Position numbers and translations under genes: made by a program. Below are positions 211 to 53,965 of a DNA stretch of 64,000 bases, piece by piece (the first letter of the stretch is position 1; every line of letters begins with the position of its first letter). The notes under the pieces were generated by a model that saw only the letters and a program-made list of their open reading frames with translations, was not told where the DNA came from and ran no database searches. Origin of the DNA: Mesostigma viride (taxonomy: Eukaryota > Streptophyta > Mesostigmatophyceae > Mesostigmatales > Mesostigmataceae); contig RPFO01000348.1 of the NCBI GenBank assembly GCA_009746045.1, positions 1,310,301 to 1,374,300 of the forward strand. Direction: 5' to 3'.

Positions 211-3200
211 TTCCTGGTGCAAGTAAAGGGGCCCACCCTGACTACTGATGGCGGCGACCTGAATGCCCACCTGAACCACATTCCCTTGTTTAAACGGCTG
301 GAGCAGGCAAGTAATGGTGACAGGCTTGTTGATAGGCTTATTGATATGCTTGTGGACAGGCTTGTTGAGAGGCTCGTTGATAGGCTCACCATATTTCACG
401 CGTGACGCGTAAGGTGTTGAATTCGAATTCGAAATCAAAGTAGCCAAACCAGCAATATAATTTGATCTAATGTTAGGTGCCGAGAAGGGCCCATGGTGGC
501 ATGTCTACCCGGGGCATGTGACGCCCCAGGGTACCAGCTGGCGATGATACCCGCCGATGGCTCCTCGATCTGCCCTGGGCCCCCCACCTGTGTAAACCCG
601 AACCAGTAGCCAGGCGTCCTTGGACACTAAACAAGTCGTCAAGTCCCGGACGTGGCTCTGTCGGTACTCTCCTTCTCCTTCTCCCCTCCCTAAACCACCC
701 CACTTGCTCAGACTCTCACCACGCCCCACTCACCCCACCCCACTCGCCACACCCCACTCACTCCAGCCCACCCACCTGCCTACCTTCCCTATCAGTCTCG
801 TTCTCCCTCCCCACCCCCCACCCCCTTCCTCCGCAATGCGCACTAGTATCGACGCCGGCCAGCCAGCCTTGCAACCAGCCTTTGTCACTACAAGTGCGCG
901 GACTATAGCCCAATCCCAGACTCACGGCGTAGCCATCGCCGGGTTCCCTCATGAGTGTGTTTCTGCTTCCTCCTCCCAACTTCCTTGAGTGTGTTTTCTG
1001 CTTCCTCCTCTCAACTTCCTTTAGCAGCCGATGCTTCTTCAACAGCAGCCTTAATGGGCAGGGCCCCACGGTTTACCCACCCCCAGGGACCAGCGTCAGC
1101 GTAGATGGGTCCCGCATCCACTTTGTTCGGGGTGGCCCGTCACGATTGTTGGGGTGGCGTGTGTTCCCAGGTTCGGGTGATAGGTGTCTGTTGATGCCAC
1201 ACCGATTACGATTGGAATTCAATGACTGGAACTCAATATAGTGCCTTGCGAGCCTTTAGCTAACCGCATCATGTGTCAAACGGTAGCGCGGCGGCAGGCC
1301 CTAGGTGCCAAAATCAATAGCTTTGCCTGCACACCATCGCTTCAACTGTATATATTTGTTTGTCACTCCAGCCATTGGGGGGGGGGCTCTGTACAGGAAG
1401 TTATCATAGGGGCTATCTCCTGCCTCTCTATGCCCTGTTGGGATGAGAGGGGTACCAAGTCCTATGCGTTGCAAGAGGGCCTACCTCTTGACCACCGAGG
1501 TAAACCTCTCTGGCTTAGGGATGGTCGGTACCGTGGAAACCCAAGCGCCGGAGGAGCGGTTGCCTTCCAAAACTATACATCAAATGATAACCTGGTCAAG
1601 GAAAAAGGTAGCATTCTCTACTCTCTAGTCACAGAGCCAGTGAGTCGGTCAGCTAGTCCATGCGTGATGATGCTGAGCCCCCGCTACGACCTGTTGTGTG
1701 CCATTGCTTGCACATCCTCTGCCACCGCTTGGATCGTTCCCACCTTATGCTTCCATCCTGCCGGCTCCTCATGCTCACTCCGCCTGTTGCATGCTGCCCT
1801 TGTTTCTGCTGTTACAATCTTACTGTTGCATGCTCCCCTTATGTCTCCTGTGTGTGTCCATCCTGTCTGCCACGTGGTCCGTCCTCCCCGCTCCTGGCTC
1901 CCATTCTCCTCATTCTTGTGCTCCCTGCCCCGTGCTCCCATTCTTTGTGCCACTTGGCTCCATTCGCGCTGGCCACATGGCATGGGTGGTGGTGGTGGCG
2001 GTGGTCGTCGTCGTCGTCGTCGTCGTCGTCGTCGTCGTCGTCGTCGTCGTCGTCGTCGTCGTCGTCGTCGTCGTCGTCGTCGTCGTCGTCGTCGTCGTCG
2101 TCGTCGTCGTCGTCGTCGTCGTCGTCGTCGTCGTCGTCGTCGTCGTCGTCGTCGTCGTCGTCGTCGTCGTCGTCGTCGTCGTCGTCGTCGTCGTCGTCGT
2201 CGCCGCCGCCGCCGCCGCCGCCGTCGGCGTCGGCGTCCTCGTCCTGGTCGTCGTTTTTCTTCTCCGACCGCTAGCAGAAGTTCCGTGCGGAGATTGTGCG
2301 CAAGATGGCGGTGGAGCAGATGCAGGCCGGCACGCCCATCCTGTACGCGGTACGCCAACTGAAACACATCTAGATCAGGGAATCAGAGGAGCATGCCATG
2401 TACACACCTCCTACAAAGGACGCGGTGCGCAGAATGAAAGTGAAAATGATGATGAAGTGAGTCTCAAACTATTATCATCCTGTACGTGGTACGCAGGGTA
2501 ATCACAGCACTTGCAAGTAAATAGCGTGAAATGCCCGCCCTGTCCACAGTACGCACGGGAAAACGAAACAATAAGTAGCTATTCAACTGATTATCCGATA
2601 ATTAGCTATTCAACAGATGTATCGTGGTACACCCCCCTTTCCTCCCCCACCAAACAGAAGGACATAAAATATCTAGGCATGGATATTGCTGATCGCTTGC
2701 CTTCTGGCCCTTTCTATCCGGCTCTGCGTACTATCACGAACACAGTGTTGAGGCATATTGCGCGTACACCCAGATGACCCACATGGTTTCCTGGGGGCAT
2801 GCATTGTTGGGACTCGGGAGAACATGGGTGGTGTTGTCACCCATGGCATGTGTTGCCAGGGAAGGCTGTGTGCACAGAGGAGACATGTTCCTTGACGCTG
2901 TCATGACAGGTGTGCCGGCATGCATGCCGTAGGAAAATGGAATCCAAGTAGTAAAGCAAATAGTAAACTGGAATCCAAGTAGTAAAGCAACTAGTGAACT
3001 GGAATCCAAGTAGTAAAGCAACTAGTGAACTGGAATCCAAGTAGTAAAGCAACTAGTGAACTGGAATCCAAGTAGTAAAGCATATAGTTAACTGGAATCC
3101 GTGTAGTACAGCAATTAGTGAACTGGAATCTAAGCAGCACAGCAAACAGTAACCTGGAATCCAATCAGTAAAGCAAATACCAAACTGGAATCCAATCAGT

Positions 3201-53965: not shown

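What the first reader, a model, noticed from the sequence alone, without database searches (positions are those of the whole stretch)
307..53400. Introns begin with echoes of the preceding exon end and splice donor
In at least ten introns of the two large genes, the sequence just inside the intron repeats, in decayed form, the last 10-30 bases of the upstream exon together with its GT donor. Periods differ (40, 42, 64, 81, 92, 112, 120, 139 bases), so this is a recurring process and not one repeat family. It suggests introns here grow by tandem duplication across the 5' splice site, leaving a usable donor at each step. I know of no described system with this systematic arrangement. Individual cases are listed separately.
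Basis: partly seen in the sequence, partly recalled or inferred. Interest (0 to 1): 0.9.

Follow-up and report, generated by a model that had tools for sequence, protein, structure and literature searches.

The report
Tandem duplications straddling intron starts
In this green-lineage alga about one intron in five begins with a decaying tandem copy of the end of the preceding exon plus its splice donor, left by short duplications that straddle the exon-intron border and apparently survive because the first, intact donor is still used.

Summary
6 of 25 donors in the two window genes have a strong local copy of exon end + donor downstream; without four donors added after repeats had drawn my eye, 3 of 21. 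Same test elsewhere in the 440-Mb genome: 18 of 85 kinesin donors, 0 of 8 in a kinesin fetched later, 10 of 54 in predicted flanking genes. Total 34 of 172 donors, 7 of 172 acceptors, and 6 of 241 donor-like GT sites outside tandem arrays.

Young echoes match over the whole unit, as tandem duplications must; echoes decay like non-coding DNA beside a constrained exon. Introns hold many other tandem duplications, so this is a slice of a general process (about 3% of intron DNA). Donor events still exceed uniform placement 4.6-fold, about 2.9-fold after an estimated correction for slower decay of the exon copy. Counting sites inside arrays, repeat coverage at donors is not above the rest of the intron. 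Donor-specific origin is unproven; tolerance at donors and loss at acceptors explain most of it.

The parts
2278..2349 (+). exon of gene 1 (cNMP-binding protein); donor at 2350
   Evidence: coding frame, AG/GT borders
2476..2494 (+). echo of 2337-2355 (exon end + donor hexamer), period 139, 18 of 19 identical
7419..7505 (+). exon of gene 1; donor at 7506
7598..7634 (+). echo of 7478-7514, period 120; the rest of the unit also matches (p 0.010)
12361..12409 (+). exon of gene 1; donor 12410 with a weak echo at 12491 (period 81)
13646..13780 (+). exon of gene 1 with cNMP-binding domain; donor 13781 with weak echoes at 13823 (period 42) and 13862-13908 (period 93)
14294..14364 (+). exon of gene 1; donor 14365 with an echo at 14477 (period 112)
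17123..17184 (+). exon of gene 1; donor at 17185
17266..17290 (+). echo of 17174-17198, period 92
17630..17718 (+). exon of gene 1; donor 17719 with a weak echo at 17759 (period 40)
19126..19179 (+). exon of gene 1 (model by phase and domain likeness only); its acceptor region 19096-19137 has an upstream echo at 18953-18994 (period 143); donor 19180 has a weak echo at 19249 (period 69)
50944..51007 (+). exon of gene 2 (GT29 sialyltransferase-like); donor at 51008
51051..51078 (+). echo of 50987-51014, period 64
53253..53336 (+). exon of gene 2; donor at 53337
53357..53399 (+). echo of 53315-53357, period 42, a complete tandem duplication

Best explanation
Short tandem duplications (about 30-250 bp) arise often throughout the introns of this genome. 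When one straddles a 5' splice site, the original exon end and donor remain as the first copy and the new exon-tail + donor copy lies inside the intron. If splicing keeps using the upstream donor, the message is unchanged, so the duplication is tolerated; the exon copy stays under purifying selection while the echo drifts as non-coding DNA, which keeps the pair recognisable for longer than a duplication lying wholly in the intron. A duplication across the 3' splice site puts the copied acceptor upstream of the real one, where first-AG choice (general knowledge, not tested) would tend to pull sequence into the mRNA, so fewer survive. Shown: tandem structure of the young cases, more low-copy duplications at donors than at acceptors or decoy sites in three gene sets, neutral-like decay. 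Inferred: use of the upstream donor, purging at acceptors. Not explained: a residual excess of about threefold at donors over uniform placement.
For: Full-length young cases: window 53337, L024 donor 1901 period 70, L026 donor 1656 period 88, L028 donor 1833 period 97, L029 donor 4548 period 153, L032 donor 2197 in several copies of a 34-bp unit (rows shown, whose output was cut). Donors with score >=34: 6 of 25, 18 of 85, 10 of 54, 0 of 8; acceptors 0 of 25, 5 of 85, 2 of 54, 0 of 8; Fisher donors vs acceptors P 7e-6 for 34 and 7 of 164, before the last locus was added. Donor-like GT sites outside tandem arrays: 5 of 141 and 1 of 100. Differences between exon end and echo in 25 events: 41 non-synonymous over 361 sites, 22 synonymous over 117, ratio 0.60, where 0.5 is my expectation for a constrained exon beside a drifting copy and 1 for two unconstrained copies. 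Period is a multiple of 3 in 8 of 26, and 12 of 26 have a stop before the echo in every frame open over the exon. Event count with each array counted once: 25 at donors, 8 at acceptors, 121 interior, expectation per junction class 5.5.
Against: Total repeat coverage is not higher at donors: with arrays included 25 of 114 donors but 44 of 194 decoy GT sites reach 34, and intron positions 22.6%, 14.2% and 13.2%. Only 6 of 23 testable units show significant similarity in the rest of the unit (p<=0.05); two short units were not testable. A plain tandem duplication with 85-90% identity in the exon part should often show more, so either intron parts are rewritten very fast by indels and new repeats, or some events copied little more than the junction. 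The excess at donors (P 5e-6 after a 1.6-fold correction that I derived) is not predicted by pure tolerance; among the youngest events (identity >=0.95) it is not seen (2 donor, 1 acceptor, 15 interior). Acceptors match the uniform expectation (8 against 8.75) and are not below it, so purging at acceptors is inferred from the contrast with donors only. L041 gave 0 of 8. No transcripts were seen.
Confidence: 0.68

Rival explanations
1. 5' splice sites are a mutational hot spot: something tied to transcription or splicing (pausing, R-loops, breaks near exon ends) makes tandem duplications start there more often.
For: About 2.9-fold excess over uniform placement remains after correction (25 observed, 8.75 expected); interior low-copy events are not concentrated within 100 bp of donors (15 seen, about 13 expected), so the excess sits on the junction itself; decoy GT sites outside arrays do not show it.
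Against: No clear excess among the youngest pairs (2 donor events, 1.0 expected at identity >=0.95), though power is low; acceptors share much of the same chromatin and transcription and show 8 against 8.75 expected.
Confidence: 0.2
2. The echoes are kept by selection as working sites: decoy, alternative or recursive 5' splice sites. A duplication across AG|GT makes an AG|GT ratchet-like point, so the unit could be spliced out and the donor regenerated.
For: 21 of 26 echoes retain a donor-like site, 15 of 26 as strong as the real one; similarity is often confined to the exon tail and about 10 intron bases.
Against: Scoring required intron-side matches, so retention is biased upward; in the unanchored event list donor-motif identity (0.87-0.90) is like that of the exon part (0.85-0.91); some echoes lost the GT (L027 donor 3393, L023 donor 2275); no frame preference.
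Confidence: 0.08
3. No donor preference at all: repeat-rich introns plus slower decay of the exon copy give the whole pattern. (This overlaps with the best explanation, so the odds do not sum to one.)
For: Coverage including arrays is the same at donors and decoys; 121 interior events in the same introns.
Confidence: 0.25
4. Chance matches or assembly error.
For: Weak cases (scores 20-26) overlap the background.
Against: Strong cases are far above background in three gene sets; most copies differ by 5-20%, which assembly duplication does not produce.
Confidence: 0.02

Closest known systems
[quoted passage not shown] potato RdRp case, PMC4974935, abstract read)
   Same: Tandem duplication spanning an exon-intron border; splice sites inherited from the copies.
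   Different: There the duplication makes a new intron, in the potato case across an intron-exon (3') border; here it lengthens an existing intron, mostly across the 5' border, at about a fifth of the donors tested.
[D] stwintrons / stwintronisation by donor duplication (Lipomyces, PMC7138796, abstract and passages read)
   Same: Duplication of a donor inside an extant intron, proposed to come from break repair; could seed two-step splicing.
   Different: There 4-7 nt duplications and internal introns shown from splicing intermediates; here periods of 34-259 bp with 5-65 bp of exon in the ungapped matches, and no evidence of an internal intron.
Intronic minisatellites / general short tandem duplication
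   Same: The same genome has abundant interior tandem duplications and arrays.
   Different: The present subset straddles donors, is nearly always low copy (24 of 25 events) and has one copy held by coding constraint.
Recursive splicing ratchet points (recalled)
   Same: An AG|GT junction inside an intron.
   Different: No pyrimidine tract or branch site was sought at the echoes and no splicing evidence exists.

Membership tests
[quoted passage not shown]
   For the echoes found, the period is shorter than the intron (intron length printed beside the period; terciles of intron length 42-505, 509-760, 790-4414 bp). My scan ended 10 bp before the acceptor and at 275 bp, so introns made in this way would not have been found
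[D] stwintron | an internal intron interrupts or abuts the donor and is spliced first | not testable with these tools
   needs RT-PCR or RNA-seq
Introner elements (recalled) | related sequences shared between many introns | tested here: not met
   28 units compared all against all: 5 cross-hits of 14-28 bp, three of them between homologous kinesin exon ends, one within one locus
Short tandem duplication | adjacent copies matching over the whole unit | tested here: inconclusive
   clear in the young cases; rest of unit significant in 6 of 23; a loose gapped extension covers most of the unit in many
Recursive splicing | use of an intronic AG|GT in two steps | not testable with these tools
   no transcripts

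The most novel reading that the evidence does not exclude
5' splice sites in this genome are preferred points for tandem duplication, through a transcription- or splicing-linked mechanism, or else the duplicated exon-end + donor copies are actively kept as decoy or ratchet sites, so that introns carry a readable record of past donors.
Probability: 0.27. Interest if true: 0.8.

Novelty: new variant of a known kind. Interest (0 to 1): 0.58.

Why it matters
It gives a direct, countable record of one way in which introns lengthen and of which splice-site duplications persist: about one donor in five (34 of 172) against about one acceptor in 25 (7 of 172). That asymmetry is a quantitative handle on how the spliceosome chooses between duplicated donors and acceptors, and the same process supplies raw material for alternative donors and for nested or recursive introns. 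My literature searches (open-access library only, listings seen) showed single-gene cases of related events and no genome-scale description.

Tried and rejected
A first ungapped, strict test found only 4 of 18 donors because short arms and indels were missed; a gapped test replaced it. Exon models changed on the way: 44073 was replaced by 44096, and 7506, 10472, 12410, 14365, 15219, 19180 and 51008 were added, four of them (7506, 14365, 19180, 51008) after repeats there had been seen; the kinesin and flank sets do not share this problem. A gene finder with loose settings called 621 exons on the two strands of 264 kb, most of them surely false, and was retrained; some of its 54 flank introns are probably still false. 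Global alignment of units aligned a stretch with itself for several cases and those rows were ignored. The shuffled control was invalid (low-complexity blocks) and is not used; the event list also misses some echoes that the anchored test finds (L026 1656, L028 4461). An exon-side skew of breakpoints seen in ungapped arms became mild with gapped extension and is not claimed. A haplotig of one kinesin (C622) was 100% identical over the stretches that aligned and uninformative. A pherophorin search to place the organism gave nothing and its control rang nowhere. A homologue search with gene 1 found nothing at E<=0.001.

Full report
What the window is. The window lies in a 440-Mb assembly of 2243 contigs at G000:C1624:1310301-1374300. 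It is a photosynthetic eukaryote: a predicted flanking gene matches photosystem I subunit III, PsaF (Pfam E 9.5e-13; solved chloroplast structures). I call it a green-lineage alga by inference; the species is not known to me. Gene 1 (about 230-21826, + strand) carries a cNMP-binding domain, gene 2 (about 43950 to beyond 53336, + strand) a GT29 sialyltransferase domain. Tandem repeats are everywhere (67 rows, some overlapping, in the window).

Gene models. Exons were read from open frames, AG/GT borders, reading phase and domain logic, then with a small codon and splice-site scorer. This gave 25 donors and 25 acceptors for testing. Two exons, those ending at 46182 and 47893, are less certain. 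Four donors (7506, 14365, 19180 and 51008) were added after repeats near them had caught my eye; three of these exons are also found by the scorer or the later gene finder (7419-7505 and 14294-14364, 50944-51007), the fourth rests on phase and domain likeness. For that reason the two further gene sets below carry the weight.

The test. For each donor the last 30 exon and first 20 intron bases were aligned, anchored at the junction and with gaps, to every position 25-275 bp downstream; acceptors were tested as the mirror image. Six of 25 donors score 34 or more (2350, 7506, 14365, 17185, 51008, 53337) where 1.1% of sampled intron positions outside arrays do; no acceptor does. Without the four donors just named it is 3 of 21. 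A separate ungapped scan without anchoring gives the same picture as a profile: at the 14-point threshold 21-27% of unmasked bases in the 20 on either side of donors lie in a repeat with a downstream copy, against 2.6% of unmasked non-exonic bases; it falls to 9% at 20-39 and 5% at 40-79 bp; at acceptors the mirror figures are 3% and 9%.

Genes elsewhere in the genome. Kinesin motor exons were found with PF00225 (129 matches listed). Sixteen loci with several exon hits in a short stretch were taken and aligned with introns to a six-sequence kinesin profile by a spliced aligner written here. It does not look at echoes; its splice-site scores were trained on window exons. Of 85 introns with at least 12 residues aligned on both sides, 18 donors and 5 acceptors score 34 or more; intron positions outside arrays reach that in 3.35% (downstream) and 3.2% (upstream) of cases. 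A seventeenth locus, L041, gave 0 of 8 donors and 0 of 8 acceptors. In the 200 kb flanking the window a gene finder retrained on window and kinesin exons gave 54 predicted introns, of which 10 donors and 2 acceptors score 34 or more; 4.9% of intron positions outside arrays do. Together 34 of 172 donors and 7 of 172 acceptors.

Is it the motif? Donor-like GT sites inside introns and outside tandem arrays reach 34 in 5 of 141 (window and kinesin genes) and 1 of 100 (flank genes) cases. So a GT motif alone is not enough. However, when sites inside arrays are included, 44 of 194 decoys and 25 of 114 donors reach 34: total repeat coverage is the same. The claim is therefore about low-copy duplications, and events are a fairer unit than coverage.

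Counting events. In the window genes plus the sixteen kinesin loci (115 donors, 82349 intron bases) I listed local repeats with periods of 25-270 bp, leaving out microsatellite-like matches. With score 14 or more there are 25 events at donors, 8 at acceptors, 2 with the upper copy at a donor, 9 mainly in exons and 121 wholly inside introns. Some are chance: an ungapped scan of the window at this score gave 49 matches, and three resampled versions 8, 2 and 8. Counting each array once, uniform placement predicts 5.5 per junction class; allowing 1.6-fold for the slower decay of an exon copy gives 8.75 (P 5e-6 for donors, no departure for acceptors); allowing 2-fold gives P 2e-4. The factor 1.6 is my estimate, from a drifting echo and an exon that changes only at synonymous sites. 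Among the youngest pairs (identity 0.95 or more) there is no clear excess: 2 donor, 1 acceptor, 15 interior; at 0.85 or more it is 17, 1 and 39. So the excess cannot yet be assigned to origin or to persistence. Interior low-copy events are not crowded near donors (15 of 94 within 100 bp, about 13 expected) and somewhat crowded near acceptors (24 of 94).

What the echoes are. Young cases match over the whole unit or most of it, as tandem duplications must (L024 1901, L026 1656, L028 1833, L029 4548, L032 2197, window 53337). In older ones the exon part is recognisable and the intron part mostly not: 6 of 23 units have a significant match in the rest of the unit, and two more were too short to test. 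The exon-to-echo differences show a non-synonymous to synonymous ratio of 0.60, near the 0.5 that I expect when only the exon is constrained; codon-position identities are 0.85, 0.91 and 0.84; the donor motif is no more conserved than the exon part. Periods are a multiple of three in 8 of 26, and 12 of 26 have a stop in every open frame before the echo. As a class the echoes therefore do not look like exons in use; single in-frame cases such as 53337 are not excluded. Units from different introns are not related to each other beyond short matches, mostly between homologous exon ends.

How it most likely works. Duplication happens broadly; a copy across the donor leaves the first donor and exon intact and is tolerated, a copy across the acceptor puts a potentially working acceptor upstream and tends to be lost. 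The exon copy is then held by selection and the echo decays. Echo-bearing donors (score >=30) are somewhat commoner in long introns (14 of 38 at 790 bp and above, 12 of 76 below), but the units make up only 2719 of 82349 intron bases, so this is a minor contributor to intron length beside interior repeats. The roughly threefold residual excess at donors is the open part.

Known neighbours. Tandem duplication as a source of introns (PMC4974935, abstract) and donor duplication as a source of nested introns (PMC7138796, abstract and passages) are in print. I saw no description of a systematic, genome-wide set of donor-spanning duplications in the listings of nine answered searches of an open-access library; most subscription papers are outside it.

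Noticed in passing
24939-25460 (+), 59164-59790 (+), 54884-55120 (+), 61400-61531 (-): Copies of one ORF, probably of a mobile element; the two copies tested have no Pfam match, and a protein search finds further copies in the 264 kb around the window.
   Followed up: partly
22174-23198: A perfect GATG array of 256 copies; other long microsatellites lie in the introns, for example 52382-53164 and 45283-46033.
   Followed up: no
307: A GC donor (GAGCAG|GCAAGT) in gene 1.
   Followed up: no
28986-29303: Part of a separate gene with a PHD finger; gene 3 on the minus strand at about 37300-39400 has no Pfam match for its first exon.
   Followed up: no
G000:C2:6329600-6335000 and C622: The same kinesin occurs on two contigs, 100% identical over the two stretches that aligned, probably a retained haplotig.
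   Followed up: partly
G000:C25, C1546 (2280827), C1535, C1420: At least four kinesins have most or all of the motor domain in one open frame while the sixteen modelled loci have 5-10 aligned pieces.
   Followed up: no
L029 acceptor 4388; L028 acceptor 3113: Rare young duplications spanning acceptors (periods 59 and 37), good subjects for testing which acceptor is used.
   Followed up: no
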